This document shows positions 1,680-20,491 of a stretch of 22,157 nt of DNA, piece by piece. The first letter of the stretch is position 1; every line of letters starts with the position of its first letter. This DNA comes from a virus. Both the position numbers and the translations under genes were made by a program. The notes beneath the pieces were generated by a model, which worked only from the letters and a program-made list of their open reading frames with translations, did not search any database and was not told the DNA's origin. The stretch lies in the IMG/VR virus record IMGVR_UViG_3300010885_013200, positions 1 through 22,157 of that record; one strand, given 5' to 3'.

Positions 1680-2417
1680 ATGACTAAGTTTCTAATATTA
1701 GTAGTGTTGATATTGTCTGGATGTGCATCAGCAACTACAGATAATGCGTTGCCGCTATCAACATTCACTACTACATTAGAGAACCGAGGAACTGTGATAT
1801 TATTGCACGGTTGTGCAGGTCCAGACTCGAGACAGGATAAATTTGCTAAACTGTTGACAGAGGAAGGGTTTAATGCTGTAGTGTTAGACTCGTGGGCATA
1901 TCGAGGAGTAGCTTACGGAGTTGGACCAAACTCTGTATGTTCTACATACTCAGTTAAGGCACGTAATCGTCGAGATGATGAGTTGTATAAAACTGTCGAA
2001 TGGATCAAGTTGCAAACATGGCATAAAGGTCCAATATCAGTTGTAGGTTGGAGCCATGGTGCAATGGTAGCACTATCGGCCGCAAATAATGGACCAGAAT
2101 ACGGCATCACTAAAGCTGTATCTTTCTATCCTTACTGTTTGCCAAATACCTACAACAATCCTAAAATTAAGATTCAATTGCATATAGGTGCAAGCGATGA
2201 TTGGACTCCTGCAAAGCTATGTCGTAATTTGTATTCATCGTCATCAAATGGTAAGTTGTTCGAATACGAAAATTCCTATCACGGTTTTGATGGTAATGTA
2301 AGTGCATCTGTTAGAGGTATAGGAGATAACGGCATTACAATGAGAACTATACAACCAAATCAAACTGCTAAAATATTAGCATATTCTAGAGTAATTGAGT
2401 TTTTAAAAAATGAATAA
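1680..2417 (+). CDS. Lipoprotein alpha/beta hydrolase, dienelactone-hydrolase family
   Basis: A 245-residue protein with a short lipoprotein signal: a hydrophobic core ending in the lipobox LSGC, lipidated Cys at residue 15. The mature part is an alpha/beta hydrolase with an oxyanion region LLHGCAG (41-47), nucleophile elbow G-W-S125-H-G, an acidic residue at D173/D174 (GASDDWTP) and H201 (YHGFD). Order and spacing match dienelactone-hydrolase-like enzymes, which cleave ester or lactone bonds. The product should be anchored in the cell envelope. A secreted lipoprotein is uncommon in a phage; roles in envelope modification or superinfection exclusion are possible but inferred. The start codon directly follows the stop of the phosphatase gene, and the 3' end overlaps the kinase gene by 8 bp. 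Confidence 0.82.
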   Translation: MTKFLILVVLILSGCASATTDNALPLSTFTTTLENRGTVILLHGCAGPDSRQDKFAKLLTEEGFNAVVLDSWAYRGVAYGVGPNSVCSTYSVKARNRRDDELYKTVEWIKLQTWHKGPISVVGWSHGAMVALSAANNGPEYGITKAVSFYPYCLPNTYNNPKIKIQLHIGASDDWTPAKLCRNLYSSSSNGKLFEYENSYHGFDGNVSASVRGIGDNGITMRTIQPNQTAKILAYSRVIEFLKNE

Positions 2418-3130: not shown

Positions 3131-3733
3131 ATGCCTAGTGTATTCTTAGTAAGCGACACGCACTTTGGACACATGGGTGTATGCCGCTTTACACGTAACG
3201 ATGGTGTTACAAAATTACGACCATATGATAGTCCTGAAGAAATGGACGAAGATATGATTGCAAAATGGAACGCCAAGGTTAAGCCCACAGACAAGGTCTA
3301 TCACTTAGGTGATGCAGTTATTAACCGTAAGGCGTTAAAGACATTAGGTCGCTTAAACGGCGACAAGGTGTTAATCCGTGGTAATCACGACATCTTTAGG
3401 GATGATGAGTACAGGTTATATTTTAGAGAATTACGTGCATACCATGTAATGAACGGCATGATCTTAAGTCACATTCCATTACACTCAGATTCAATGGGAC
3501 GCTTCGGTGTTAACATTCACGGACACTTACACGCCAATCGCGTGAAGAAGGCTCGTGGTGTTGATGCTAGGACTGGAGATATCTTATACAGTGACGAAAA
3601 CGATGTACGTTATCATTGTGTTTGTGTAGAACAAACTGACTTTGCGCCTATCTTATTTGAAGAAGTGATTGCACGAATCGAAGCAGAAGGTGGATGTGTA
3701 GGGTTTAGGAACGGTAACGGACCTACAATGTAA
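3131..3733 (+). CDS. Calcineurin-like metallophosphoesterase (phage type)
   Basis: A 200-residue metallophosphoesterase with all expected motifs: SDTHFGH (D9, H11), HLGDAV (D61), IRGNHD (N85, H86), LSHIPLH (H114) and IHGHLH (H130, H132). These residues form a two-metal site that hydrolyses phosphomonoesters or phosphodiesters. The RPYDSPEEMDEDMIAKWN stretch is characteristic of a subgroup common in phages; its natural substrate is not known to me. The start is supported by a strong AGGAGG 6 bases upstream of the ATG. A bidirectional terminator begins at the stop codon. A second, longer family member lies at 17656-18504 but is clearly divergent, so the two are not a recent duplication. Confidence 0.92.
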   Translation: MPSVFLVSDTHFGHMGVCRFTRNDGVTKLRPYDSPEEMDEDMIAKWNAKVKPTDKVYHLGDAVINRKALKTLGRLNGDKVLIRGNHDIFRDDEYRLYFRELRAYHVMNGMILSHIPLHSDSMGRFGVNIHGHLHANRVKKARGVDARTGDILYSDENDVRYHCVCVEQTDFAPILFEEVIARIEAEGGCVGFRNGNGPTM

Positions 3734-3763: not shown

Positions 3764-4078
3764 TTAAAATTCGCTTACTTCTGCCGTTAATCTAGGAGCC
3801 GATGCAATATTGTTGTCTGCATTATGTGAGTTTTTTATATCATGCCATCCAAGCGTCTTAGGATCTGCAAGAAATTCATCGTAATCTTCTTGGGTATTCC
3901 ATACCCATTCAGATGTCATTGTTAAAAAATCTTCAGAGTTAGTAACCTTAACTGATAATAGTTTTCCGGTATCTTTATATGTTGATTTAAAGTACTCAAA
4001 TAATTCTGGAGTCATGTTAACTGTGTGAAATGGGACATCTGCACTAGTCCTAGTAAATTGGTTTGTTACTTTTATCAT
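3764..4078 (-). CDS. Small phage protein, possible ABM/ferredoxin-like fold (104 aa)
   Basis: The minus-strand reading frame extends to 4093, but the Met at 4078 is preceded by AAGGA about seven bases upstream on its strand, so 104 residues are called. I recognise no named family. The pattern (MIKVTNQF strand, helix TPELFEYFKSTY, strand LLSVKVTNS, then WVWNTQEDYDEFLADP, an aromatic helix) is reminiscent of ferredoxin-like antibiotic-biosynthesis-monooxygenase folds; this is a guess. The gene converges on the metallophosphoesterase with a shared terminator and diverges from the cupin operon at 4179. Confidence 0.65.
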   Translation of the reverse strand: MIKVTNQFTRTSADVPFHTVNMTPELFEYFKSTYKDTGKLLSVKVTNSEDFLTMTSEWVWNTQEDYDEFLADPKTLGWHDIKNSHNADNNIASAPRLTAEVSEF

Positions 4079-4178
4079 AATTAATCCTTGCAAGGTATTC
4101 TACATGTATTTATCAGTTATTTTTTTTTAGGATAACTAATATGGTCATAAATATGCGTACATAACTCAAGGCTCAACA
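4079..4178. promoter_or_regulatory. Divergent intergenic region with late-promoter-like octamers
   Basis: This 100-base gap separates two divergent genes and must hold their control signals. No good TTGACA/TATAAT pair is visible. It has CATAAATA on the plus strand (4146-4153), 25 bases before the ATG at 4179, and GATAAATA on the minus strand (complement of 4107-4114), about 28 bases before the minus-strand ATG at 4078. Both match the T4 late consensus TATAAATA at seven of eight positions. A run of nine T's (4120-4128) lies between 6-bp inverted arms AGTTAT (4115-4120) and ATAACT (4132-4137). In AT-rich DNA such matches can be chance. Confidence 0.35.
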
Positions 4179-4805
4179 ATGTCAGACTTTTTCTTTATAG
4201 AACACGAGTTCAAATCTTCCAACAGACACTTAGTATCGTGTTTTAAAAATACTGGAAGTCATACATACTCTAATACTAATTTTACTAGATTTTTCATATT
4301 ACAGAACGCATCAATAGCTACGAACAAGTTTACGGGTGCGGGCGATGTGGTTGCGCGAGTGAATGGAGAAGTTACAATAAACGGAGATCATGTAGTAGTT
4401 GAAACCCCAGGCTACTTGTTCAAAGATGAAATTGTATCAAGCTATAATAAAGGCATTATTGGAGACCTAAGCTATATCGACGGATGCAGTAATACTAACC
4501 TAATTAATCCTCCACGCAACGGAGACCCATGTATGAACTACTTATATTTCCCACCAGAAGTTAGCCAGCAGTTTCATACACATCCTAGCGTTAGAATTGG
4601 GCTAGTTGTTGACGGCAACGGAATTGCCTGTACACCAACTGGAGAAATTCCATTAGTTGCAGGAAAATGCTTTTATTTAGATAGACATGTGCTACACAGA
4701 TTTAAAACAACTAACAACAGTTTAAGTATTGTAGTATTCCATCCCGACAGTGATGATGGTCCTCGAGACGAATCTAACCCTATGAAAACAAGGACTTACC
4801 TATAA
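4179..4805 (+). CDS. Cupin-domain protein, first gene of the accessory operon
   Basis: A 208-residue protein with a C-terminal cupin barrel. The first metal motif is QQFHTHPS (H133, H135) followed by a glycine-rich turn (VVDGNG); the second is LDRHVLHRF (H170, H173). The N-terminal ~110 residues include beta-rich sequence (VVARVNGEVTINGDHVVVETPGYL) that could be a degenerate first barrel. Cupins bind a metal and act as dioxygenases, isomerases or sensors; the specific reaction cannot be read here. AAGG lies seven bases before the ATG. The stop overlaps the next ATG (TAATG), and four genes follow with gaps of one base or less. Confidence 0.75.
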   Translation: MSDFFFIEHEFKSSNRHLVSCFKNTGSHTYSNTNFTRFFILQNASIATNKFTGAGDVVARVNGEVTINGDHVVVETPGYLFKDEIVSSYNKGIIGDLSYIDGCSNTNLINPPRNGDPCMNYLYFPPEVSQQFHTHPSVRIGLVVDGNGIACTPTGEIPLVAGKCFYLDRHVLHRFKTTNNSLSIVVFHPDSDDGPRDESNPMKTRTYL

Positions 4806-5419
4806 TGGCCAGCTACTTAACATATGTTTTACTAGACGATGAAAATTTAGGAATTTTAGCATCTAGTAAAAGTTTACCGTTAATACAATTTTTATCAACT
4901 GGCATAATGGATACTAGTTTAAAAAGTTTGTTAACATATGCACCTAGTACTAAAGATACTGCAACCTGGCTTGAGGATAATAGGGCAAATCTATCTGAAA
5001 AAAATATAACGTTGGTATCTGATAAAATATTAGATATGCAACCTGAGAATATAACTGCAAATTTTTTACAAAAAAAGAGATTAGTGCAGTTACGTATTCA
5101 ATTATTTCAATATTTGATAGCAGTCACTGACATATATATTTCGATGCATACCTATACTACATCTGACATATTTGATCTAACTACATCTGATATTTTAAAA
5201 AATAATGAACTGTTAGAGTTATATGCTGATGCTCGAATATTACCTGTAGACGAAGCAAAAAAAGAATTAGAAATGAAACATCAAACTAGAATTGCTACAC
5301 TAGTAAGACTACAAGGTAATATTGATCGACATGTAGCTGAAATAAACTTAATTGAAAATCAAGGCCAAGCACTAAAAATGTATGCTACCTTAAAAGAGTT
5401 CTACGCAAATAAACTTTAA
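4805..5419 (+). CDS. Unknown mostly helical protein (204 aa)
   Basis: I do not recognise this 204-residue protein. It begins with a beta-like hydrophobic segment (SYLTYVLLDDENLGILA) and continues mainly as predicted helices rich in Leu, Asn, Lys and Thr. Residues about 147-190 (EAKKELEMKHQTRIATLVRL onward) look like a long amphipathic helix or coiled coil. No cysteines, catalytic signature or signal peptide are visible. It is translationally coupled to the cupin gene (TAATG) and ends one base before the asparagine-synthetase-like gene. This suggests a partner or scaffold for that enzyme, which is an inference from position only. The gene is very AT-rich. Confidence 0.7.
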   Translation: MASYLTYVLLDDENLGILASSKSLPLIQFLSTGIMDTSLKSLLTYAPSTKDTATWLEDNRANLSEKNITLVSDKILDMQPENITANFLQKKRLVQLRIQLFQYLIAVTDIYISMHTYTTSDIFDLTTSDILKNNELLELYADARILPVDEAKKELEMKHQTRIATLVRLQGNIDRHVAEINLIENQGQALKMYATLKEFYANKL

Positions 5420-5420
5420 A

Positions 5421-6530
5421 ATGTTAAAATTAATAAACTATACGCCTAGTATTTTTAATAACGATTTAACTTTTAAAAATTTACCAGGTGTTGCTGATTG
5501 GTTATCGGTATATTCTTTTATCGATTATTCAGTAGCATTAAATGATAGATCAGATACTATTAAATTACCAGTCAGTACTGTAGTTCCTGCACATTTAGCA
5601 TTACCTAATTTTAAAATAACTAATTTAACATACAGAGAATGTTGTCATAAAAAAGTGTTGGATCTTATTTCACTAAGCAAAACTACTGGAAAAGAAATAT
5701 GTCTAATGTATAGTGGCGGTATTGATAGTAGCGTAGTACTATCGTCATTTATAGATTTATTAGGGGTAGATGTTGCTGCTAAGAAAGTTAATATTTTAAT
5801 GAGTCAGGAGTCTATATTAGAAAATCCTGTAATGTGGGAGAAATTCATTCGACCACATTTTAAAATAACCAATAGTAAACTATATCATAGAAACGGAATC
5901 GATGAATCAAAGATTCTAGTATTTGGCGAACTTAATGATCAGTTGTTTGGCAGTGACATTTTGAAAAACATATCAATATGGGCCGGGCACGACATGCTGA
6001 ATAACACATTTACAGTAGATGTCGGAATCCGATACCTAACTGAATATTGTAAAATGAATATTCAATACGCTACTACATGGAGTGAATTACTAATAGAAAA
6101 TTTAAAGTCATGCCCGCATCATAATTCATCTGTTTGGGATACATTTTGGTGGTATAATTTTGCATTAAAATGGATTAATGTGTATTATCGATATCTTATG
6201 AGGTGTAACATAACTACTGAAATAACTCAGGAACAAATAGACACATCATACTGCGCATTTTTTAATACTGAAGATTTTCAATTATGGAGTATGAATAATA
6301 ATGAAGACAAACATCAAGGAACTTGGGATAGTTATAAGTATGCCGGAAAAAAGCTAGTAGCAGAAGTAACTCAAGATTCTAATTTCTTTAATAGAACAAA
6401 AAAGAATAGTTTACAAAATGTATTAATGTTAAGTAACCCAACTAACTATGTGTTTGAGAACAACGTGATGGTACGAGCTATTGACGATAACTTACCATTA
6501 TACAACCCCGATAACTACTTTATAAAATAA
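5421..6530 (+). CDS. Asparagine-synthetase-like ATP-pyrophosphatase without glutaminase domain
   Basis: A 369-residue protein with the PP-loop SGGIDSS at residues 98-104 (preceded by CLMY), the ATP-pyrophosphate signature of the synthetase domain of AsnB, beta-lactam synthetase and lasso-peptide cyclase. A second motif, GELNDQLFGSD (169-179), aligns with the GEGxDELFGG motif of AsnB. The Cys-initiated N-terminal glutaminase domain is absent, replaced by about 90 unrecognised residues. Enzymes of this type activate a carboxylate as an acyl-adenylate and form an amide or ring. Without a glutaminase the nitrogen donor could be ammonia, an amine or an internal amino group. It is flanked within one base by genes for an unknown helical protein and an aminotransferase-like protein. 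Confidence 0.8.
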   Translation: MLKLINYTPSIFNNDLTFKNLPGVADWLSVYSFIDYSVALNDRSDTIKLPVSTVVPAHLALPNFKITNLTYRECCHKKVLDLISLSKTTGKEICLMYSGGIDSSVVLSSFIDLLGVDVAAKKVNILMSQESILENPVMWEKFIRPHFKITNSKLYHRNGIDESKILVFGELNDQLFGSDILKNISIWAGHDMLNNTFTVDVGIRYLTEYCKMNIQYATTWSELLIENLKSCPHHNSSVWDTFWWYNFALKWINVYYRYLMRCNITTEITQEQIDTSYCAFFNTEDFQLWSMNNNEDKHQGTWDSYKYAGKKLVAEVTQDSNFFNRTKKNSLQNVLMLSNPTNYVFENNVMVRAIDDNLPLYNPDNYFIK

Positions 6531-6531
6531 C

Positions 6532-7389
6532 ATGGCTGATAATAATCCTTTCTGGAACAAACTTACAAAACCTATTCGCGATACAAAGATTAACAATATT
6601 ATTGACTCGTTATCAGTATACGAAACGTCACCCTGGGATAAAAATTTTAACTTTATGGAAAGGCTAGCGCCTAAGCAAAAGTTATTTTTAAAATTAACTA
6701 ATTGGCTATCTCCGTACTTCTCTGGATTTAATCAACTTCCGGAAAAATATATATGCAATGGAAATTCTGATTCATTAAATCATATTTTTATGGATCAAAA
6801 ATTTAAACGTGTATTTACGCTCGATAACGAATATAGCTATTATGGATATCTATGTCAGTCACTAGGTATAGAAAAAAAGATATTCACTATTGATACTATT
6901 GATCAAATAACTGAAGATGATTTGGTTTGTATCAGTGTACCTAATTCATACGATGGAAGAGTTGATAACCGACAAGATATTATATCTATATTACAGGATA
7001 GAAATATTCCAATTTACATAGATGTTGCCTACTGCGGATTAACTACACCGTTTAAAATTAATATTAAATCTACTAGCAATACATATTTTGCATTTACATT
7101 TAGCAAGTCTTTAAGTACGAGCTTTAATCGTATTGCTGTACTATATGCTGGACAGCCTGTTCCAGGATTGGAGATTATGAACAAAGTTGGTTATGTTAAT
7201 CTTTCAGGGGTAAAGATAGTAAATGCACTTATGGACCAATTACCATGCGACTACATATATCAAACATATGTAAACCAGTATGCTGATATTTGCAAAAGAT
7301 TAAATCTAACCCCAACTGATTGTATTTTATTTGCGCACGACGGCGATCAACAGAAGTTTTGCGTATCTGAAGAATACGTTACCGAATAA
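6532..7389 (+). CDS. Short PLP-dependent aminotransferase-like protein (fold type I)
   Basis: A 285-residue protein with the class I/II aminotransferase landmarks in order: ICNGNSDSLNHIF (75-87), like the cofactor phosphate loop; VPNSYDGR (136-143), like the NPxNPTG region with N138; YIDVAYCG with D164 and Y167, which contact the pyridine ring; and FTFSKSLSTSFNRIAVLYA with probable Schiff-base lysine K192 and R200. The nearest look is histidinol-phosphate aminotransferase. It is about 70-100 residues shorter than usual, and the C-terminal substrate-binding domain is reduced. It may be a specialised enzyme or have lost transamination. The start follows the previous stop by one base. Its end overlaps the minus-strand gene by 11 bp. 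Confidence 0.72.
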   Translation: MADNNPFWNKLTKPIRDTKINNIIDSLSVYETSPWDKNFNFMERLAPKQKLFLKLTNWLSPYFSGFNQLPEKYICNGNSDSLNHIFMDQKFKRVFTLDNEYSYYGYLCQSLGIEKKIFTIDTIDQITEDDLVCISVPNSYDGRVDNRQDIISILQDRNIPIYIDVAYCGLTTPFKINIKSTSNTYFAFTFSKSLSTSFNRIAVLYAGQPVPGLEIMNKVGYVNLSGVKIVNALMDQLPCDYIYQTYVNQYADICKRLNLTPTDCILFAHDGDQQKFCVSEEYVTE

Positions 7390-7912
7390 ACTCGTGCTCT
7401 ACGTTTTCCCCAATAGCTAGTATATTCTGTTGGCATTCTGGATTATCGTAGTCATCGCACACCCAAACTGCATTATCCCACACTTCACAGTTAACGCCTC
7501 TGGCTTTAATGTAAGATCCTAACTGTCCAAGGGTGTTTTTATATCCAAGTTTTCTTGATATAATGGCAGATCTAAAATCAGGTAAAGTTCTGCAAAAATT
7601 AACTTGTTGCATTATCATGTCAGTCCAAAATTCTTCAATACGTTTTGTAAATACATCTTTAGGGACAGGTTTAAAGACTCTATTCAATACTCTGTATACG
7701 CCAACTGGCCAATATGTTTTCCTGGCAATACTACTGCATAAGTACACTGTATCGACCGAACAGCTCATACTGTATGCAACTATTTCGGATTTGTTAAATC
7801 TTTCTCTATAGTTGATTGACAAGGGGTGATTAGACGTTGCGATTTGTAATCTTGCAGAGTCGAACCGGTCTTGTAAATCATTATCAGTAATCCAGGTAAA
7901 AGTATTAATCAT
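7379..7912 (-). CDS. Unknown protein, possible GNAT-fold acyltransferase (177 aa)
   Basis: A 177-residue minus-strand protein of uncertain family. Hydrophobic beta-type segments alternate with helices. FWTDMIMQQVNFCRTLP followed by SAIISRKLGYKNTLGQLGSYIKARG is similar in layout to GNAT-like proteins encoded by phages (long helix, then an R-K-rich turn and strand). I place it with the genes at 9267 and 12028 only on this layout, not on residue identity. Its ATG (complement of 7910-7912) abuts the ATG of the plus-strand gene at 7913, making CATATG. No Shine-Dalgarno sequence is evident. It converges with and overlaps the aminotransferase-like gene by 11 bp. Confidence 0.6.
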   Translation of the reverse strand: MINTFTWITDNDLQDRFDSARLQIATSNHPLSINYRERFNKSEIVAYSMSCSVDTVYLCSSIARKTYWPVGVYRVLNRVFKPVPKDVFTKRIEEFWTDMIMQQVNFCRTLPDFRSAIISRKLGYKNTLGQLGSYIKARGVNCEVWDNAVWVCDDYDNPECQQNILAIGENVEHEFIR

Positions 7913-8605
7913 ATGAATAGTTTTGAACTTTATAGTAAACTTAAAAAAATACCGTTCCTAAAGATAGGTCAGGTAGACTATTTAGACAATCTCAAACTAC
8001 TACTACCGCAGTTACGGAATCGACCAGTAGCACCATTTAGATATGATGAGAATCAATCCCCAACATTACTCTCATTAGGGGTAAATGTAGAAAGCATATA
8101 CGACTCTACAGATATAGAATTAGGATCTATATCATCAACTATACTTAAAAGCAGCCCCTGGAAAAACTGTATTCCTAAAACTCTTGCTAATGATTTTCCT
8201 TTATTGAAAAAAGTTGTTGATGATTATATAGATGTTCCTGGTAGGTGCAGGCTTAGTGTCTTACCGCCTGGCAGCCAGGTTAGATGGCACTGTCACGGAT
8301 ACTTACATACATTACCATCACTAACTGAAGTAATATTGCACATGCCGATACAATCAATTAATGTTGCAGCCAGAGTTGCTGATAGTAATTATAATAAAAT
8401 ATACGAAAGCATGTTTAACGAAGGTGAAGTTTGGTATTTAAATACTTGGTTACCACATAGTTTTGATAATCGCGGCCCGTTAGATAGATATCATCTTTGG
8501 ATGAATGCATACTTAACTGATAAACTAGGTGAAAACGTAAATCTTAAATTGAATTCTTTATTAGAAGATGCAGTAGCCAAGTATGAAGGTCCTTTAGTAA
8601 CATGA
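7913..8605 (+). CDS. Aspartyl/asparaginyl beta-hydroxylase-like oxygenase with HCH iron motif
   Basis: A 230-residue protein matching the aspartyl/asparaginyl beta-hydroxylase family. CRLSVLPPGSQVRWHCHG (residues 112-129) is the first iron strand, with H126-C-H128 in place of the usual HxD. TEVILHMPIQS is the next core strand, GEVWYLNTWLPHSFDNRG carries the distal H182, and R192 in DRYHLWMNAYL is the 2OG-binding arginine. The family hydroxylates Asp/Asn or related side chains using Fe(II), oxygen and 2-oxoglutarate. Replacement of Asp by His is notable, since some relatives work without the carboxylate ligand. The start codon is back-to-back with the minus-strand gene; the 3' end overlaps the next gene by ATGA. 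Confidence 0.8.
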   Translation: MNSFELYSKLKKIPFLKIGQVDYLDNLKLLLPQLRNRPVAPFRYDENQSPTLLSLGVNVESIYDSTDIELGSISSTILKSSPWKNCIPKTLANDFPLLKKVVDDYIDVPGRCRLSVLPPGSQVRWHCHGYLHTLPSLTEVILHMPIQSINVAARVADSNYNKIYESMFNEGEVWYLNTWLPHSFDNRGPLDRYHLWMNAYLTDKLGENVNLKLNSLLEDAVAKYEGPLVT

Positions 8606-9291
8606 AAAATACAAAGTACATGATGACTGCTACTACCAGTCTTCCATCTATGTCTCAATCATTAATAGATCAATTGTTGAAATGGCATGATGCAAATAAA
8701 ACAGTACTTGTTAACAAAGGAGCAAATGCGTTATATTCTCCCTGGGTATCTACAAAAATACGTGATGGTGACCTAAAAGAAAATATAATTTATAATATTC
8801 CTAATACAATTCCTGGGACACAATGGAATAAATGTTTTGTTGAAGAGTTTCCACAACTAGTAGAATATTTTAACTGCTTGCCTCTTAAGAGGGTTGATAA
8901 AATTATATTATTAGAAACAACTAAGTCGTGTGTTCCGCACGTTGACCTTAGTAGTTTATATTACAATGACATATCTTTAGAACCAGCTAATTATAGAATG
9001 TCTCTTAGACACGGCAAAAGTAACGGGTTCTATGTACAGCCTGTTCCAGAAGATCAGTTTGGATATCCCCGCAAAGAGCAGTTTAGTCCGTACCCTAAAC
9101 AAAATTACAATCCAGAAGTTGGCAAATGGTGGGTGTTAAACAATTGGTGTTGCCAACACGGTAGTGACTGGATCGAAGGCGATCAAAAAGTTTTAATATC
9201 AGTGCAAGGGACACCATCGTTGAAACATATAGAAGTAATTAATAACGATGTTGAGAATGTGCTGTATTATCCTGGATTAACTACCGGCTGA
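8602..9291 (+). CDS. Divergent 2OG/aspartyl-hydroxylase-like protein
   Basis: A 229-residue protein coupled to the preceding hydroxylase through an ATGA overlap. DKIILLETTKSCVPHVDLSS (residues 99-118) gives H113-V-D115, and GKWWVLNNWCCQHGSDW provides H186; the order matches the hydroxylase fold. The 2OG-binding arginine is less clear: K196 or R132/R136 could substitute. The two tandem oxygenases share architecture but little sequence, so they are not a recent duplication and may act on different positions or form a heteromer. The 3' end overlaps the minus-strand gene at 9267 by 25 bp, and no terminator separates them. Confidence 0.68.
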   Translation: MKNTKYMMTATTSLPSMSQSLIDQLLKWHDANKTVLVNKGANALYSPWVSTKIRDGDLKENIIYNIPNTIPGTQWNKCFVEEFPQLVEYFNCLPLKRVDKIILLETTKSCVPHVDLSSLYYNDISLEPANYRMSLRHGKSNGFYVQPVPEDQFGYPRKEQFSPYPKQNYNPEVGKWWVLNNWCCQHGSDWIEGDQKVLISVQGTPSLKHIEVINNDVENVLYYPGLTTG

Positions 9292-9953
9292 TTTAAATAT
9301 GGAGATTGGACTTCATCAAGGGTCAGTAAATCTTCTTGTATATGCGCAGGTAGATCAGTTCTATATTTTTGTAAGCAAGTAAATCTACAAACTACTGTAT
9401 CTTCTTCAAAGCGTTTTCCTCTAAATAATATCTTTGAATACGCATCTATTTTACTAGTTTCCCCTGCAGGAATGTAATCTTCTACGGTTCTAATATATTT
9501 TCTAGCAAAGTCGAGTCCAAACGTATATCCAACGTTGTTTGCAGTTTTAAATAAATCTCTCATAACCCTACCATTGTTTAATCTAGTATGTCCAACTGAT
9601 CGTAGAAATATAAACGAATACCTGTGCTCCTTTTCTTTTTGTTGTATTAACTCTGCAATATTCATGTATCCGTTTTTGCTAGCATCAAAGTAGTTTACTT
9701 TTCGAAATACTTTTTGATTTAATACTGCATAGTTAGGTAACGTTGGAAAACTATAAAGGCAGATCATGCTAACTGGCTCATCATTTTCGTACCACATGAA
9801 TGTCTCGTGATTAGGCATAGTGATACTCTGGGCCACGTAGTCCATGTAGTCTTTTCTTGGTATCTTAGTTCGACTCATTCCAATTCGTTGATCTCCAGGC
9901 CCAACTAACGAATCGATTAGTCCAATGTCATCTAGTGTAAGTAATTTATGCAT
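9267..9953 (-). CDS. Probable GNAT-fold acyltransferase-like protein (228 aa)
   Basis: A 228-residue minus-strand protein. The central order fits the GNAT fold as seen in large-phage proteins: FMWYENDEPVSMICLYSFP (strand pair), NGYMNIAELIQQKEKEHRYS (helix), FIFLRSVGHTRLNNGRVMRD (strand, then possible acyl-CoA contact region). I do not see the classical Q/R-x-x-G-x-G/A acetyl-CoA loop, so the call is tentative. GNAT enzymes acylate amines; homoserine-lactone synthases and N-acyl amino acid synthases are acyl-ACP-using relatives. This gives a possible but unproven link to the ketoacyl synthase gene that diverges from it. Upstream on its strand lie AAGGAG (12 bases) and AGAG (5 bases) before the ATG. 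Confidence 0.6.
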   Translation of the reverse strand: MHKLLTLDDIGLIDSLVGPGDQRIGMSRTKIPRKDYMDYVAQSITMPNHETFMWYENDEPVSMICLYSFPTLPNYAVLNQKVFRKVNYFDASKNGYMNIAELIQQKEKEHRYSFIFLRSVGHTRLNNGRVMRDLFKTANNVGYTFGLDFARKYIRTVEDYIPAGETSKIDAYSKILFRGKRFEEDTVVCRFTCLQKYRTDLPAHIQEDLLTLDEVQSPYLNQPVVNPG

Positions 9954-9961
9954 AAAATCTC

Positions 9962-9990
9962 TTGACTCCTTACTGTTAATTATATATAAT
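9962..9990 (+). promoter_or_regulatory. Sigma-70 promoter for the ketoacyl synthase gene
   Basis: TTGACT (9962-9967), 17 bp, then TATAAT (9985-9990) inside TATATATAAT. The palindromic -10 also reads TATAAT on the minus strand, but no -35 box fits there. The leader to the ATG at 10021 is about 23 bases with only a weak GGAA before the start. Confidence 0.88.
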
Positions 9991-10020
9991 GTTATGTAGG
10001 TATTCTAAAACTGGAAATGT

Positions 10021-11238
10021 ATGAATAATAAAATTGTAATAACTGGAATGCAGGTATGGGATTCGATTGGTACTGATGTAGCATCAAACTTTCAGACTAT
10101 CCTAAAAGAAAAACATCGATTGCCGCAGTCCTTGACTAATCATAATATTGGGTGGGATCGAAATGAAATGAACGATCAGTATTATGGTTTTGTATTATCA
10201 AATAATCCAGGTCTTGAAGATCAAGTAAAGAAGTATCGAGAGAAAGAATTAAATGCAGAAGTTATCAAAGCTGCATTGTATGTTGCAACAAAAGCAATTG
10301 AGCAAGCTGGCCTAGTTGAAAACAAATATCGAATTGGTGGCTTTGGCACTTCATTATTTTCAGCAGCCGACGTACTGGCAAGATCAGTAGACGGATTCAA
10401 AAAGGGTAGAGCTAGATGTCACCCAGATGATCACTTCTATCAAAATAGTGAATTTTTAATTTCAATGATCAGTAAGTATTTTGATTTAAACGGATTAACT
10501 TCTTCTATCTCAGCAACTTGCAGTAGTGGGCTTGTTGGCCTTGAACTAGGGTCAGCATTGATTAAACAAGGGTTACTTGATCAAGTAATTCTTATCTGTG
10601 CGGACTTACCCACGGACCCGTACGCTATCTATAGAATGAACAGTGTTAGAGCATTAAGCAAATCAAATATTAGCAAGCCATTTGATATTACTAGAGATGG
10701 CATTGTAATGGGCGACGGCATTGCAACATTTGTTATTGAGTCCGAACATACTGCTATTCAACGTGGCGCAAAGATACTTGCGAAAATCGAAGGAAGCGGC
10801 TCAGCAAATTCTAACATGCATCCGACAAATCCTGGCATGATGACTGATGCATATTATCTAGCATTTAAATCTGCAATGGAAACAAGCGGCCTTAAACCAG
10901 AAGACATTGACTGGATTTCAGCACATGCCACTAGTACACCCGATGGAGATAGAGTTGAAGATCAGATTATGTCTGAGTTATTGCCGGGCAAATCAATGAC
11001 TTCGTTTAAAGGACACATCGGCCATACTATGGCTGCAAGTAGTGCTATTGAGTTAATTTACACTATAGAGGCAATGAAAAATAAAATCATCCCTCATGTT
11101 GCTAACACTATTGAAGTAGACAATACTGATTCTAAACTAACCATTGTTTTAGAAAACACTCCAAATCAATCAAAATATGTTTTAAAGAATAGTTACGGCT
11201 TTGGTGGCAGAGCCAACTCTATTATTGTTAGCGTGTAA
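10021..11238 (+). CDS. 3-oxoacyl-[acyl-carrier-protein] synthase, FabF (KAS II) type
   Basis: At 405 residues this is full length for FabF (about 413). The thiolase-fold catalytic set is complete: C167 in ISATCSSG, H302 in SAHATSTPDGD, K330 in SFKGH, H335 in IGHTMAAS, and the glycine-rich NSYGFGGRANS near the C-terminus. Such enzymes decarboxylate malonyl-ACP and condense it with an acyl thioester, elongating fatty acids or polyketides. Two changes from FabF are AHATST (for HGTST) and the replaced AAG after the second His. No ACP, ketoreductase or dehydratase gene is in the window, so host ACP and reductive enzymes would be needed. It has its own consensus promoter, and its stop abuts the stop of the minus-strand oxygenase. 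Confidence 0.93.
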   Translation: MNNKIVITGMQVWDSIGTDVASNFQTILKEKHRLPQSLTNHNIGWDRNEMNDQYYGFVLSNNPGLEDQVKKYREKELNAEVIKAALYVATKAIEQAGLVENKYRIGGFGTSLFSAADVLARSVDGFKKGRARCHPDDHFYQNSEFLISMISKYFDLNGLTSSISATCSSGLVGLELGSALIKQGLLDQVILICADLPTDPYAIYRMNSVRALSKSNISKPFDITRDGIVMGDGIATFVIESEHTAIQRGAKILAKIEGSGSANSNMHPTNPGMMTDAYYLAFKSAMETSGLKPEDIDWISAHATSTPDGDRVEDQIMSELLPGKSMTSFKGHIGHTMAASSAIELIYTIEAMKNKIIPHVANTIEVDNTDSKLTIVLENTPNQSKYVLKNSYGFGGRANSIIVSV

Positions 11239-11988
11239 TTAATAAGTTTCTAGTTTATCTATACCTAACTGTGTTCTAAACTCGTCAGTGAATGTCCCGT
11301 CAACTCTAAGGCTCCACGTCATTTTAGAGTTAGGATGGCCACCATGCATATCTAAGTCATTAAAAAATGCTGCCTTAGCCGTGACCGGATGTTCGACATC
11401 CGCAATTTCGTCGTATATAAAGAAATCTTTTACACCGCATGGATTAATCCAAAGGAACTCATTTTTATGAGGAATAATTTTTGTACCATCCCTGTGAGTA
11501 AGTATTTTACAATCGTGCTCGTGCAGGAAAAATACAATACGCCCTATTTCTTTAAACGGTAGTTTATAAATCCATTCAATTAGTGTTGGAAAATATTTTT
11601 CATTTTCTGTGAACTTAGTTTCAGACTCTTTTCCTTTATTTAGGTAACTAGCTTCGTTTAGTTTAGGATTTTTGTAATCTCTAATATATACTACCGAACT
11701 AGCACTGTACATTCCGTTGTATAATTTAAAATATAAAGACCTTTGATTTCTACTTAATGAGTTAAACAATTCTCGCTCTTTGTTAGATAAAAATTCATTC
11801 TCGCATTTTACTCTAAGTTCTAAATAGTTCCCGTACTTCTCATTGTCTTTTATGCCTGGACCGTACAGGCCAGCTTGTATATTACTTTGTACTATACCAT
11901 AACATATTTCTCTTTCTAAAGAAATAATACCCTGCAAGTCGATGTACGCATCTGCGTTAATATAAGGGGAGCCGTTGATTCCGTTCAT
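11239..11988 (-). CDS. 2OG/Fe(II) oxygenase-like protein, minus strand
   Basis: The open frame extends to 12033, but the Met at 11988 has AAAGG about nine bases upstream on its strand, giving 249 residues; the longer N-terminus is hydrophobic by accident of AT-rich leader. The iron motif is H165-R-D167 (KILTHRDGTK), with H215 or H218 (DLDMHGGHPN) and R228 (WSLRVDGTF). IGRIVFFLHEHDC precedes the HxD and is a core strand. The N-terminal 140 residues are rich in Tyr, Asn and Glu and are unassigned. The reaction is likely hydroxylation or desaturation using 2-oxoglutarate; substrate unknown. It ends immediately next to the ketoacyl synthase stop (11238/11239), with no terminator between. Confidence 0.75.
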   Translation of the reverse strand: MNGINGSPYINADAYIDLQGIISLEREICYGIVQSNIQAGLYGPGIKDNEKYGNYLELRVKCENEFLSNKERELFNSLSRNQRSLYFKLYNGMYSASSVVYIRDYKNPKLNEASYLNKGKESETKFTENEKYFPTLIEWIYKLPFKEIGRIVFFLHEHDCKILTHRDGTKIIPHKNEFLWINPCGVKDFFIYDEIADVEHPVTAKAAFFNDLDMHGGHPNSKMTWSLRVDGTFTDEFRTQLGIDKLETY

Positions 11989-12027
11989 AATAATAGCCTT
12001 TATTTTTATTAATAGATAAATTAATTT

Positions 12028-12648
12028 ATGCAAACGATGGCCTTACCCAAAAATAAAATCCAACGATTAGACCTCTCACATTGGAAAGATATAGAAGATT
12101 TATATTTTGCGTGTGAAGATGCAGTTAGGTCACGCATTATTGCAAAGGGTGTTGATAAGCCTGCAGAACCTGAAGCTGTTGAAAAGATTTGGCAGTTATG
12201 GAGTAACGCTATAAAACGATATTACCTAATAGGGGACGAATTTCACTACCTATACGGAATATGGGACAATGAAAACGTTCTACAAACTATGTTAGGTTGG
12301 CGCTGTGACTTGCCAGCACCCTACAATAACGATTGGGTTATTGTTTACATGAAAAGTAGACCGGAATCAACATTAGGTTTTTTAGAACCGTTATGGAGAT
12401 TAATGTTCGAACAATGTGAAACTAGAGGGTTTGATAAATGGCATGCAATAGTGTCTAAGGATCGATATACAAAGTTTGATGCATTTGAAAGGAGGTTTAC
12501 TCCCGACATCCATAGTCGATATAAATACGAAACACTAGTAGATATGCCACCAGAGACACAGCCAACTATCGAATGGGTATGGGCTATGATGGGCCGAAAT
12601 CTATTAAAATCGCACCACGAAGTTAGAACAGGAACCCGTATCAAATGA
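12028..12648 (+). CDS. Probable GNAT-fold protein, first gene of the desaturase operon
   Basis: A 206-residue protein resembling phage GNAT-like proteins in layout. ACEDAVRSRII is helix 1; HYLYGIWDNENVLQTMLGWR is a strand pair with a turn; WVIVYMKSRPESTLGFLEPL leads into a helix (WRLMFEQCETRG); then strand HAIVSKDRY and a C-terminal RYKYETLVDMPP. No clear acetyl-CoA pyrophosphate loop is visible, so the call is tentative. No Shine-Dalgarno sequence is seen before ATG 12028; ATG 12037 is an alternative start. It overlaps the desaturase gene by ATGA and is probably cotranscribed with it and the hydroxylase at 13444. This makes an acyl-related role attractive but unproven. Confidence 0.62.
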   Translation: MQTMALPKNKIQRLDLSHWKDIEDLYFACEDAVRSRIIAKGVDKPAEPEAVEKIWQLWSNAIKRYYLIGDEFHYLYGIWDNENVLQTMLGWRCDLPAPYNNDWVIVYMKSRPESTLGFLEPLWRLMFEQCETRGFDKWHAIVSKDRYTKFDAFERRFTPDIHSRYKYETLVDMPPETQPTIEWVWAMMGRNLLKSHHEVRTGTRIK

Positions 12649-13457
12649 TCAATACCTCAGAAATGTTTATTCCTATTAGGAAGAACTTACTTTTAACTGC
12701 TAATCTAACACTGATTAATATCCCTATTTGGATCATAGGGTTATCTAGCTTGTATCTATTAGCAACTGATTTTGAAGTCTACAAACTCGCATTGTTTTTA
12801 GGTGGTTATTTCTTTTTTAACATACTAGGAATTACTGCCGGGTTTCATCGATATTTTTGCCACAAGAGTTTTAAAGTTAGCAAATGGAAAGAACTGCTAA
12901 TGATGCTTGCAGGAACTTTGGCAGCACAGGGCCCTATTATTTACTGGGTGGCATTACACAGAGGATATCATCATAGACATGCTGACGGCCCAGAAGATCC
13001 ACATAGTCCAATACATGGATTTTGGCATAGCTTTGTGCTATGGATGTTTAGATTGTCTCCTACTGCCATCAGTCTAAAGACTGCTGTGGATTTGTTAAGA
13101 AATAAAAATGCTATGTTTATGAGTAAACATTACAGAGCCATAGTATTAACTTTTTGGGCAATTGCATTATTCATTAGTGTTGACTTCTTTTTGTTCGGAG
13201 TAATGTTACCAACACTAGTTACTATCTGCACGTACAACATAACAAATAGTGCTACTCATATAAAGTCGTTGGGTTATACTAATTTTAAGACTAGAGATAA
13301 CAGTGTAAACTCTCCGTGGTTGTGGCCATTTGTACTAGGCGAGTGCTGGCATAACAATCATCATGGTCGTGCAGGCGACTACAGCCTTAAACAAAAATGG
13401 TGGGAACTAGACCCAGCTGGAGCATTTATTACCGTGTTTAAAGATGGCGATAGATAA
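12645..13457 (+). CDS. Membrane fatty-acyl desaturase (delta-9/stearoyl-CoA type)
   Basis: A 270-residue membrane protein with the three histidine boxes of di-iron acyl desaturases: H68-RYFC-H73 (HX4H) in GITAGFHRYFCHKSFK, H105-RGY-HH (H109, H110), and H236-NN-HH (H239, H240) in GECWHNNHHGRAG. Hydrophobic spans at about 17-40, 45-66, 87-104 and 165-198 fit the four-helix topology with boxes on the cytoplasmic side. Enzymes of this family insert a cis double bond into saturated acyl-CoA, acyl-ACP or lipid-linked chains, using oxygen and electrons from ferredoxin or cytochrome b5. No electron donor gene is visible, so a host partner is implied. At 270 aa it is slightly short. It overlaps both neighbours (4 bp and 14 bp). 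Confidence 0.95.
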   Translation: MINTSEMFIPIRKNLLLTANLTLINIPIWIIGLSSLYLLATDFEVYKLALFLGGYFFFNILGITAGFHRYFCHKSFKVSKWKELLMMLAGTLAAQGPIIYWVALHRGYHHRHADGPEDPHSPIHGFWHSFVLWMFRLSPTAISLKTAVDLLRNKNAMFMSKHYRAIVLTFWAIALFISVDFFLFGVMLPTLVTICTYNITNSATHIKSLGYTNFKTRDNSVNSPWLWPFVLGECWHNNHHGRAGDYSLKQKWWELDPAGAFITVFKDGDR

Positions 13458-14511
13458 ACCTAGTTTTAAAATAGCAGACTGCCCAGACAACAAGACTGTG
13501 CATGGTTGGATGGACTCTGTTTTAAATCTATCAGAAAAATTTAACGGACTTATCCCCGAAACAACCGGGGATCCGTTTATCAAGTTTAAAATTAATAATT
13601 TTGATATCCCACAAATTTTAAATGCGGTATCAGCTACAACTGAAAAATACGGGTGGCACGGGTTCTTAAGCCATTTTAAAGATACCACTAACATTACTAA
13701 GCAACGAACCAAATACTATGGTGGCTTTTCTATCACTCATAATCCAGATATTGCATACCCAGTAGATGAACATGCTAGTGCGTTAGGGGAGCCTAAAGCC
13801 AATCTAGGAACTTTTTTTAAAAGCGGATTAGGTATCAAGATATGGATGAAAATGGAAGAGATGAAAATTACTCATACATTTTATAAAATTTGTTTTGAAG
13901 AAGGTATGCAAGGAGTTAAAACTTTTCTATTACATCACGGGCTTATTTCAATAGACGATAGTTTTGAATGGGCAGATAAATTAAACTCGCATGTCTCTTC
14001 AAGTAGGAAAGGTTTAAAAAACGGATATTTTGATACTTATAGTTTTAGAAATTTATCCACCGGTGCACAAACTGGGATGTTGGGCAATTTTTTAACCAAT
14101 AGGATGCAACGAAGTCTATGTAGAAGTAGAGCTGCATTTATAGACGGCACTGCATGGAGCACTATTTCTAAAGAGTTAATGTGGCACTACGACGAACCTA
14201 TATATTTAAATTTACGTATTAATATTCCATTGCAAACAAGTAACAACTATGTTTGCGAAATCAAAGGAGACTCCAACGAATACCATTTTGATGTAGGGTA
14301 TGCATATTGTTGGGATACTACCGTAGTACATCGTGTGTACGCAAAGCTACCTGAAGATTCTAAACGCATACATCTAGTTCTAGGAACTATTCCGTGGTTT
14401 GATTTTGATCATGATAGTCAAACATACTACGCCAATGAATTTTACGGAGAAATGCATCCTTTTGATATGGTTGCTAATGGACACATTATATCCGATATCA
14501 GCGTGACCTAG
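13444..14511 (+). CDS. Long aspartyl/asparaginyl hydroxylase-like oxygenase
   Basis: A 355-residue protein whose C-terminal third matches the aspartyl beta-hydroxylase fold: H248-Y-D250 (LMWHYDEP), core strand YLNLRINIPLQTSNNY, GYAYCWDTTVVHRVYAK with distal H296, and R308 in KRIHLVLG for 2OG. The first ~230 residues, including FSHIT-like and WMKMEEM helices, are not a domain I recognise and may determine the substrate. It starts inside the desaturase gene (14-bp overlap), so desaturase and oxygenase are made together. This could mean sequential oxidation of one substrate, which is an inference. A consensus promoter for the next gene starts 11 bases after its stop. Confidence 0.78.
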   Translation: MAIDKPSFKIADCPDNKTVHGWMDSVLNLSEKFNGLIPETTGDPFIKFKINNFDIPQILNAVSATTEKYGWHGFLSHFKDTTNITKQRTKYYGGFSITHNPDIAYPVDEHASALGEPKANLGTFFKSGLGIKIWMKMEEMKITHTFYKICFEEGMQGVKTFLLHHGLISIDDSFEWADKLNSHVSSSRKGLKNGYFDTYSFRNLSTGAQTGMLGNFLTNRMQRSLCRSRAAFIDGTAWSTISKELMWHYDEPIYLNLRINIPLQTSNNYVCEIKGDSNEYHFDVGYAYCWDTTVVHRVYAKLPEDSKRIHLVLGTIPWFDFDHDSQTYYANEFYGEMHPFDMVANGHIISDISVT

Positions 14512-14555: not shown

Positions 14556-15089
14556 ATGACCAATGTATCGAAAAGCCCCGAACGACATACATTCCAAATG
14601 GAAAATTATGTTAAGCGCCGGGAAGAAGAAGGATTAGAACCTCTTGAAGAATATATCGAGATGTTTAAAACTTGGAAACAACAAGACGAAGAAAATATGG
14701 TTGATCCAAACTGGCAGAAGAACAATATGGAATATGATCTTCGGTCAACCAATTGGATACTTGCTAAAGTAAGGGAATCCGATACTTATGCTCAAAATCT
14801 GTATGCAGCTATTTGCAACAATGATTTCTGCAAGCGTGAATTGTGGCCTCTTCTCAAAGAAGAATACTGGAGTGCCAGTTGGCGCTCAGCTGGCGGCATT
14901 GTTGCAGATATGCGTGAGCATGGCGACTACATCGATTGGTACTGTAGCGGTATCGGCAGCGGCCTAGGTAATGGTGACGAAGATGGCACTAAGGGATATG
15001 TTTCAGAGAGTGTAGTAACAGAAGAAATTAAAGACGACCTATACAAGTTAGGTTGGTTAGTAATAGAATCAAAGGGTGATGTTGAATGA
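14556..15089 (+). CDS. Conserved phage protein of unknown function (177 aa)
   Basis: A 177-residue acidic soluble protein with no named domain that I recognise. The N-terminal half is charged and helical (RHTFQMENYVKRREEEGLEP and EYIEMFKTWKQQDEEN). The C-terminal half holds the block ELWPLLKEEYWSASWRSAGG, followed by HGDYIDWYCSGIGSG and a final GWLVIESKG strand. The aromatic, Ser/Gly-rich pattern looks conserved and could be a binding site. The ATG at 14556 gives a leaderless message; an internal ATG at 14598 also lacks an SD, so 14556 is kept. It overlaps the next gene by ATGA. Confidence 0.78.
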   Translation: MTNVSKSPERHTFQMENYVKRREEEGLEPLEEYIEMFKTWKQQDEENMVDPNWQKNNMEYDLRSTNWILAKVRESDTYAQNLYAAICNNDFCKRELWPLLKEEYWSASWRSAGGIVADMREHGDYIDWYCSGIGSGLGNGDEDGTKGYVSESVVTEEIKDDLYKLGWLVIESKGDVE

Positions 15090-15859: not shown

Positions 15860-16525
15860 GTGAATACCAATCTCTATGCGGTTCGCAGTATATGTACAAG
15901 TATAATGACTGAGGCCCATACAGGTTCCAAGTTTCGCAGCCTATTGGCAAAAATTCGCAAGCACTTTAAATCTTTAGATTTAGTTATACATACTAAAAGA
16001 ATAAAGACACTAGAAGTTAATGAATTCTATATCAATGCATTTTATGACAGCATTGCCGATCATGAAAATGAATGCCCTATAGAAGTAATAGTATACCACA
16101 ATATTGATTCTGAAGAGTTTTTTGAACACAGTCAAGTTGGGCAATTCCTAGTTCAATTATATGACGCTGTTGTACATGAACTACGACATCAAGAGCAAGG
16201 GCGAGCTAGAAATTATCTTCCCAATCCATATGTTGTTGATCTTGAATCAACTGTTAGCTATCTAAGTGATCCAGATGAGATCGATGCGTATGCACTTAGC
16301 ATTGCAATTGAGCTTATTCGAATTTTGGGTAGAACACGTAGCATACAGTACCTGCACCGTGCAAGCCGATTAGCCAATGTTCGCCCAAAAGGCTTGTATG
16401 CAAGTCCAAACTTATTTGCCTACTTTGAAACTTTTGAGCGGCTTAATCATCCTGTTATCCGTAAGTTGTTAAAAAAAGTGTTTTTGAACTTAGAAACACT
16501 TGACAAGAACGCTGTTTTCTACTAA
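15860..16525 (+). CDS. HExxH metalloprotease-like protein A
   Basis: A 221-residue protein with VVHELRHQEQG: H106-E-L-R-H110 is a zinc-protease signature. A second conserved element DPDEIDAYALSIAIEL (138-151) offers E140 as a third ligand, typical of gluzincin-like arrangements. The C-terminus has ERLNHPVIRKLLKK. All three elements recur in the protein at 21169, so the two genes are paralogs. The family could be a peptidase acting on phage or host proteins, or a wall/peptide endopeptidase; no signal peptide is visible. The start is a GTG two bases after the IF-1 stop, with no clear SD; an ATG at 15905 is an alternative. Confidence 0.8.
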   Translation: MNTNLYAVRSICTSIMTEAHTGSKFRSLLAKIRKHFKSLDLVIHTKRIKTLEVNEFYINAFYDSIADHENECPIEVIVYHNIDSEEFFEHSQVGQFLVQLYDAVVHELRHQEQGRARNYLPNPYVVDLESTVSYLSDPDEIDAYALSIAIELIRILGRTRSIQYLHRASRLANVRPKGLYASPNLFAYFETFERLNHPVIRKLLKKVFLNLETLDKNAVFY

Positions 16526-20069: not shown

Positions 20070-20491
20070 AAATTGGACTAAGCTATAGCCGTTGTATTTT
20101 GGATATCGTTGAAGGTCGCGTAGATATGGATGATGTACTGGTATTGATTACTCGTACAGATTTTGATCCACGTGATGACGAACAATGGGAAGGTATTTGG
20201 CAAGGATATACACTTGGCGGAATGAGTAATCCAGAATGGGGTCACTATGACTTTAACAGTAAGGACGATGAAGGCAAGTTCCGTAGTGTGAGCATTATGC
20301 TCTACACAGATGGCAAAATGCATCAGCCTCGTCAATTTGGCGCACATCCAAGACGCAGACCAGAATTCTGGTTAGAAACAGTTCTTCCAACGGAAGAATT
20401 AGAAAAGAACCCTGCGGCAAAACTTGCTTGGGAAAAGTTTCAAACAGTTGCCAGTTTAACCAATGTAAATTTAGATAAGGATTACCAATAA
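20066..20491 (+). CDS. Phage protein of unknown function (141 aa)
   Basis: A 141-residue protein with an N-terminal segment KIGLSYSRCILDIVEGRVDM, a beta-rich middle (DVLVLITRTDFDPRDDEQWE), and a C-terminal helix KNPAAKLAWEKFQTVAS. Tryptophan and aspartate are frequent. No enzyme motif, signal or membrane span is visible. The layout (YSRC, then a DDVLVLI strand and a Gly/Trp-rich stretch) looks like a conserved phage family. It overlaps the SGNH hydrolase gene by ATGA, and its stop overlaps the clpP start by one base (TAATG). Confidence 0.72.
   Translation: MKIGLSYSRCILDIVEGRVDMDDVLVLITRTDFDPRDDEQWEGIWQGYTLGGMSNPEWGHYDFNSKDDEGKFRSVSIMLYTDGKMHQPRQFGAHPRRRPEFWLETVLPTEELEKNPAAKLAWEKFQTVASLTNVNLDKDYQ

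What the first reader, a model, noticed from the sequence alone, without database searches (positions are those of the whole stretch)
4179..14511. Candidate phage-borne biosynthetic island for an acylated, oxidised, possibly amidated product
Seen: within about 10 kb a phage-type contig carries a complete FabF-like ketoacyl-ACP synthase, a complete membrane acyl desaturase, an asparagine-synthetase-like PP-loop enzyme lacking the glutaminase domain, a PLP aminotransferase-like protein, a cupin, four 2OG/aspartyl-hydroxylase-like oxygenases and three possible GNAT-fold proteins. Known: these families make or decorate fatty-acid-derived metabolites, amides and hydroxylated amino acids. Inference: together they could make a lipid-amide, N-acyl amino acid or altered membrane lipid during infection. 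No carrier protein is visible, so host acyl-ACP would be used.
Basis: partly seen in the sequence, partly recalled or inferred. Interest (0 to 1): 0.85.

Follow-up and report, generated by a model that had tools for sequence, protein, structure and literature searches.

The report
Phage gene island building acyl metabolite
A large bacterial virus carries a 10-kb block of enzymes that look able to extend, desaturate, hydroxylate and transfer a fatty-acyl chain, and related viruses carry the same enzyme kinds together with their own carrier protein and its activating enzyme, so these viruses appear to make their own unknown lipid-like molecule during infection.

Summary
The 4179-14511 island of this 22-kb virus record holds a FabF-like ketosynthase with intact catalytic residues, a stearoyl-CoA-desaturase-type enzyme with all histidines, three GNAT-type proteins (two confirmed by confident models), four oxygenase-like proteins, a PP-loop enzyme, a short PLP enzyme and a cupin. 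In 68 dereplicated viral contigs (some are 364-400 kb and carry a T4-type capsid gene), a GNAT gene lies directly upstream of 41 of 105 desaturases (shuffled mean 3.9, maximum 11). The ketosynthase lies directly upstream of 11 (mean 2.0, maximum 7). Eight dereplicated relatives encode ketosynthase, acyl carrier protein, FabZ and AcpS; six checked records have exactly two carrier proteins each. The window has no carrier protein. No malonyltransferase or FabH was found, so host supply is needed. Island families are under purifying selection (dN/dS about 0.05-0.18). Best reading: a hypervariable phage island that builds and decorates an acyl metabolite, perhaps an N-acyl amide. The product and its purpose are unknown. 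Phage desaturases and prophage acpP-fabF-fabG were already known; this combination I did not find described.

The parts
4179..4805 (+). cupin-domain protein (208 aa); not found in any other contig examined
   Evidence: Pfam Cupin_2 2e-6, over cut-off; window only
4805..5419 (+). 204-aa protein of unknown function, paired with the PP-loop gene
   Evidence: no Pfam hit; relatives directly upstream of PP-loop relatives in L010 and further contigs
5421..6530 (+). PP-loop ATP-pyrophosphatase-type enzyme (369 aa), SGGIDS motif intact, no glutaminase domain
   Evidence: alignment A5; PDB profile LarE 3e-4, AsnB 0.14
6532..7389 (+). short PLP fold-type I enzyme, aminotransferase-like (285 aa), K192, D164 and R200 conserved
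   Evidence: Pfam Aminotran_1_2 0.002, below cut-off; A4 invariant columns; nearest PDB histidinol-phosphate aminotransferase, 0.018
7379..7912 (-). GNAT-fold protein of a family found only in viruses so far (gnat7382)
   Evidence: AF2 pLDDT 88; Foldseek GNAT hits; 23 of 25 new contigs found with it carry a desaturase
7913..8605 (+). aspartyl/asparaginyl beta-hydroxylase-family oxygenase (oxyB)
   Evidence: Pfam Asp_Arg_Hydrox 6e-5, over cut-off
8602..9291 (+). 2OG-oxygenase-like protein (oxyC), H113xD115...H186
   Evidence: A8 invariant columns; up to six copies per relative island
9267..9953 (-). GNAT-like protein (gnat9270)
   Evidence: family profile hits in 22 contigs; no structure predicted
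10021..11238 (+). elongating beta-ketoacyl-ACP synthase, FabF-like, C167/H302/K330/H335 intact
   Evidence: Pfam; A6; PDB FabF 1e-36
11239..12033 (-). 2OG-oxygenase-like protein (oxyD), HxD...H...R
   Evidence: A9 invariant columns; no Pfam or PDB sequence hit
12028..12648 (+). GNAT-fold protein (gnat12028), directly upstream of the desaturase
   Evidence: AF2 pLDDT 89; Foldseek GNAT 1e-7; same order in relatives
12645..13457 (+). membrane acyl desaturase of the stearoyl-CoA desaturase type, all histidine boxes intact
   Evidence: Pfam 2e-16; PDB acyl-CoA desaturase 4zyo 2e-18; A7 invariant histidines
13444..14511 (+). Asp_Arg_Hydrox-family oxygenase (oxyE), directly downstream of the desaturase
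   Evidence: Pfam 2e-6, over cut-off; A10 WHxDE...H
3131..3733 (+). left flank backbone gene, metallophosphoesterase, 85-94% identical in relatives with different islands
14556..15089 (+). right flank backbone gene, unknown function, 15 contigs

Best explanation
The island is a hypervariable biosynthetic cassette at a fixed backbone position in a lineage of large, at least partly T4-type, phages. It makes a decorated acyl metabolite in the infected cell. Shown by sequence or structure prediction: the enzyme classes, intact KAS, desaturase and PLP active sites, the recurring GNAT-desaturase, KAS-desaturase and KAS-ACP-FabZ gene orders, and purifying selection. Inferred: the KAS extends an acyl-ACP (on host ACP in this genome, on phage ACP activated by phage AcpS in relatives) using malonyl units loaded by the host. 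The desaturase introduces double bonds, the oxygenases hydroxylate the chain or its head group, and the GNAT proteins transfer the acyl group to an amine supplied or activated by the PLP and PP-loop enzymes, giving an N-acyl or amide product. The benefit may be a change of host envelope, a signal, or a weapon; it is unknown.
For: KAS with intact C/H/K/H and FabF relatives. SCD-type desaturase with all histidines. GNAT folds. GNAT directly upstream of the desaturase in 41 of 105 cases (shuffled mean 3.9, maximum 11) and KAS in 11 (mean 2.0, maximum 7). 23 of 25 contigs found with the GNAT alone carry a desaturase. ACP, FabZ and AcpS adjoin or lie near the KAS in relatives and are Pfam-confirmed; exactly two ACPs in each of six records, one beside KAS-FabZ and one beside gnat7382-desaturase. 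dN/dS 0.05-0.18 in island families.
Against: The window has no ACP, FabZ or AcpS. No FabD or FabH in 12 related records. Island content differs strongly between relatives, so no single product is conserved. The window KAS is only 27-29% identical to the KAS of the relatives that have ACP. The GNAT models match many ordinary acetyltransferases and do not identify an acyl-ACP donor. Genes lie on both strands and are not one operon.
Confidence: 0.5

Rival explanations
1. The island remodels existing host envelope lipids (phospholipid, ornithine lipid or lipid A acyl chains) rather than making a free metabolite: the desaturase acts on lipids, the Asp_Arg_Hydrox proteins act like LpxO or OlsC, and GNAT resembles OlsB in role. 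The likely benefit is superinfection exclusion or membrane fluidity.
For: SCD-type desaturase; Asp_Arg_Hydrox family hits, the family that from general knowledge includes LpxO and OlsC; cyanophage lipid desaturases are cited in PMC8224337 and PMC11480375.
Against: The PP-loop, PLP, Rieske, B12 radical SAM and carrier-protein genes of relatives are not needed for simple lipid desaturation; no lipid A acyltransferase was seen in the window.
Confidence: 0.25
2. The block is a hyperplastic region where unrelated auxiliary genes gather; each enzyme acts alone and there is no common pathway.
For: Content is highly variable; solute-binding TctC proteins, nitroreductase, carbamoyltransferase and others also occur in relatives; host genes in a hyperplastic region are known from cyanophages (cited in PMC3037559).
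Against: Gene-order statistics for GNAT-desaturase, KAS-desaturase and desaturase-desaturase exceed all 2000 shuffles; KAS-ACP-FabZ adjacency in eight relatives; fused GNAT pair in three dereplicated contigs.
Confidence: 0.15
3. The oxygenases and GNATs modify virion or host proteins (for example tail fibres) or nucleic acid, with the KAS and desaturase as bystanders.
For: A similar island in pelagiphage Mosig lies next to tail-fibre genes; phage Mu Mom is among the Foldseek hits of one GNAT.
Against: Desaturase is the strongest partner of the GNAT genes; carrier proteins and AcpS make sense only for acyl or aminoacyl chemistry.
Confidence: 0.1

Closest known systems
Pelagibacter phage Mosig EXVC030M island (MT647606)
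   Same: Asp_Arg_Hydrox, desaturase and PLP6532-family aminotransferase genes in a row, with TauD and N-acetyltransferase genes nearby
   Different: no KAS match in the 30 kb held; includes radical SAM, nitroreductase and carbamoyltransferase genes; lies beside tail fibres
Cyanophage lipid desaturases (Roitman et al. 2018, cited in PMC8224337 and PMC11480375)
   Same: phage-coded membrane acyl desaturase
   Different: from the citations only (paper not held): desaturases, with no report seen of paired GNAT, KAS or carrier protein
acpP-fabF-fabG in three roseobacter prophages (PMC8224337)
   Same: phage-linked ACP and KAS
   Different: gene order as in the host fab operon, in predicted prophages; here a virus lineage with tailoring enzymes, AcpS and FabZ
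Dedicated type II acyl systems of bacteria (AcpXL/FabZXL/FabFXL for very-long-chain lipid A acyl; aryl polyene clusters; from general knowledge)
   Same: own ACP, FabZ-type dehydratase and KAS in relatives of the window
   Different: no acyltransferase of the lipid A type seen; many oxygenases, desaturases and GNATs; partial set to be completed by host FabD and primers
FeeM and LuxI-type GNAT-fold acyl-ACP transferases (from general knowledge)
   Same: GNAT fold beside acyl-chain genes
   Different: no sequence match; LasI is only one of many weak Foldseek hits

Membership tests
FabF/KAS II elongating ketosynthase | Cys-His-His triad plus Lys | tested here: met
   C167, H302, K330, H335 invariant in A6; PDB FabF 1e-36
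Stearoyl-CoA-type (Delta-9) membrane desaturase | three histidine boxes and the further metal-ligand histidine | tested here: met
   H68, H73, H105, H109, H110, H205, H236, H239, H240 invariant in A7
Stearoyl-CoA-type (Delta-9) membrane desaturase | activity on an acyl-CoA, acyl-ACP or acyl-lipid | not testable with these tools
   needs assay
GNAT superfamily | GNAT fold | tested here: met
   7379 and 12028 only; 9267 not modelled
GNAT superfamily | pyrophosphate-binding loop Q/RxxGxG/A | tested here: inconclusive
   loop after strand 4 is degenerate in A1 and A2 by inspection
N-acyl amino acid synthase or LuxI family | sequence relation to FeeM or LuxI | tested here: not met
   no Pfam or PDB sequence match
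Fe(II)/2OG oxygenases | HxD...H facial triad | tested here: met
   oxyC, oxyD, oxyE; oxyB (7913) has HCH at the first site by inspection and is placed by Pfam Asp_Arg_Hydrox only
Asparagine synthetase B | N-terminal glutaminase domain | tested here: not met
   369-aa ORF without that domain
Asparagine synthetase B | PP-loop SGGxDS | tested here: met
   SGGIDS invariant in A5
Class I/II aminotransferase | PLP lysine, N1 aspartate and phosphate arginine | tested here: met
   K192, D164, R200 in A4; Pfam score 17.6, below the 19.7 cut-off
Complete type II fatty acid synthase | own ACP, FabD and FabH in the element | tested here: not met
   no ACP in the window; no FabD or FabH in 12 related records

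The most novel reading that the evidence does not exclude
A lineage of large phages runs its own acyl natural-product pathway, with virus-coded ketosynthase, carrier proteins, AcpS and dehydratase plus recombining sets of desaturases, GNATs and oxygenases, so that each phage makes its own variant of an acyl signal, lipid or toxin in the infected cell.
Probability: 0.35. Interest if true: 0.93.

Novelty: new variant of a known kind. Interest (0 to 1): 0.78.

Why it matters
Phage auxiliary genes are usually single enzymes that boost a host pathway. A conserved multi-enzyme acyl module, with carrier proteins and the activating AcpS on large phage genomes, would mean that some viruses synthesise their own specialised lipid-like compounds. 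It would give a concrete gene set for testing whether phages use small molecules for superinfection exclusion, signalling or competition, and a source of new desaturases, oxygenases and acyltransferases.

Tried and rejected
Single-protein pattern scans with the KAS and PP-loop proteins found no viral relatives; alignments were needed. Genome-collection scans with the GNAT and PLP alignments found no bacterial relatives; they rest on one or two short patterns, so absence is weak evidence. I first took the KAS and the cupin to be private to the window; the GNAT-anchored sample overturned that for the KAS. An undirected KAS-desaturase nearness test was not significant (11 of 31 within two genes, shuffled mean 7.2, maximum 16); the directional test was. 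ACP-desaturase adjacency (8, shuffled maximum 9) and ACP-PLP adjacency (2, shuffled maximum 2) did not exceed all shuffles. Asparagine synthetase B, FeeM/LuxI and a complete fatty acid synthase were tested and rejected as memberships. Foldseek could not separate acyl-ACP-using GNATs from acetyltransferases. PDB profiles gave nothing for the oxyD and oxyE families. Habitats and hosts could not be read from the tools.

Full report
What is in the window. The window is a complete IMG/VR virus record of 22,157 bases with no near DNA match among 50,697 phage records. Between a left flank (phosphatase 1206, polynucleotide-kinase-like 2410, metallophosphoesterase 3131) and a right flank (14556, cupin 15086, IF1-like 15637, metallopeptidase-like 15860 and others) lies an island of thirteen ORFs. 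GC is 0.349 in the island and 0.392 on each side. Pfam supports the KAS, desaturase, cupin and two Asp_Arg_Hydrox proteins over their cut-offs, and the PP-loop and PLP proteins only weakly. AlphaFold2 models of the 12028 and 7379 proteins have mean pLDDT 89 and 88 and GNAT topology, and Foldseek returns GNAT structures. The third GNAT-like protein (9267) was not modelled.

Active sites. In an alignment with five phage KAS proteins the catalytic Cys, both His and the Lys are invariant; the closest solved structures are FabF (1e-36). The desaturase is closest to solved acyl-CoA desaturases (4zyo, 4ymk; 2e-18) and all its metal-ligand histidines are invariant in 18 phage sequences. The PLP protein keeps the lysine, aspartate and arginine of class I enzymes but is short. 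The PP-loop protein keeps SGGIDS; its best PDB profile match is LarE, with asparagine synthetase only at E 0.14. Three oxygenase families keep HxD...H.

Relatives. A scan with the desaturase gave 21 viral loci. Many carry the window's own backbone genes at 85-94% identity around a different island, so the island is a hypervariable site in one phage lineage. Recurrent families are gnat7382 (21 contigs), the PLP enzyme (18, one of them pelagiphage Mosig), gnat12028 (17), oxyC (19 contigs, 51 genes) and oxyD (15). The order gnat7382-gnat12028-desaturase recurs, and the two GNAT genes are fused in three dereplicated contigs. Six of 12 long records tested, including ones of 365 kb and 400 kb, carry a T4-type Gp23 capsid gene, and four a terminase.

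A scan with the gnat7382 alignment, chosen without reference to the desaturase, gave 25 new contigs; 23 carry the desaturase and six a KAS. A scan with the KAS alignment gave 43 loci. Of 31 KAS contigs dereplicated at 90% identity, 23 carry a desaturase in the held stretch and eight carry ACP, FabZ and AcpS, with ACP and FabZ the first and second genes beside the KAS. Pfam confirms PP-binding, FabA-like, ACPS and Rieske domains. Six KAS records have exactly two ACPs each, one beside KAS-FabZ and one convergent with gnat7382-desaturase. Other relatives closer to the window have an ACP next to or near the PLP gene. Across 68 dereplicated contigs a GNAT gene is directly upstream of 41 of 105 desaturases (shuffled mean 3.9, maximum 11 in 2000), a KAS of 11 (2.0, 7) and another desaturase of 19 (5.8, 14). 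One contig has a KAS followed by five desaturases. Contigs were collected by these anchors, so presence counts are biased; the shuffles keep content and test order only.

Selection. Median dN/dS is 0.05-0.18 in the eleven island families tested, against 0.06 for the backbone metallophosphoesterase; some rest on few pairs and many dS values are near saturation. The genes are kept functional.

What is missing. The window itself has no ACP, FabZ or AcpS in six-frame profile searches. No FabD or FabH was found in 12 related records, and an SDR reductase passed the cut-off in only four. Host malonyl loading and priming are therefore needed. The GNAT donors and acceptors are unknown. Hosts and habitats could not be established.

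Reading. The best-supported reading is a phage biosynthetic cassette for a decorated acyl product: KAS chain extension on host or phage ACP, desaturation, hydroxylation, and GNAT transfer to an amine, with PLP and PP-loop enzymes supplying or activating the amine. Only the enzyme classes, intact sites, gene order and selection are shown; the chemistry is inference. Rivals are envelope lipid remodelling, a dump of independent auxiliary genes, and modification of virion or host macromolecules.

Known work. Phage desaturases are known from cyanophages (cited in PMC8224337 and PMC11480375; the original was not held). acpP-fabF-fabG was reported in three predicted roseobacter prophages. T4-like cyanophages carry many 2OG oxygenases and LPS gene clusters (PMC3037559). 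Searches of the open library found no report of a virus island with ACP, AcpS, FabZ and KAS beside paired GNAT-desaturase genes, but the library lacks most subscription papers.

Noticed in passing
window 20491-21111: ClpP-like protease 61% identical to the ClpP or head maturation protease of the jumbo Pseudomonas phage PA5oct group
   Followed up: partly
   Followed up: partly
window 1680-2417: Dienelactone-hydrolase-type alpha/beta hydrolase among the flank genes; relatives lie inside or at the edge of the island in several contigs
   Followed up: no
window 15860-16525 and 21169-21894: Two homologous metallopeptidase-like proteins (HExxH-like motif by eye) present in the same phage
   Followed up: no
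L012 and L013 islands: Four to six oxyC-family oxygenase genes per island, many in tandem, plus a second small 2OG-like family (u0) with 55 copies over 21 contigs
   Followed up: partly
L010 16187-17137 and L065 3649-4527: Phage genes for secreted TctC-type solute-binding proteins in the islands, with no transporter partner noticed
   Followed up: no
L097 (3300013126_000105) 5590-10657: A KAS followed by five tandem desaturase genes
   Followed up: no
window 3764-4093: Small protein at the left edge of the island; relatives of 100-140 aa recur in the islands and look like ABM or EthD-type dimers by eye, without Pfam support
   Followed up: no
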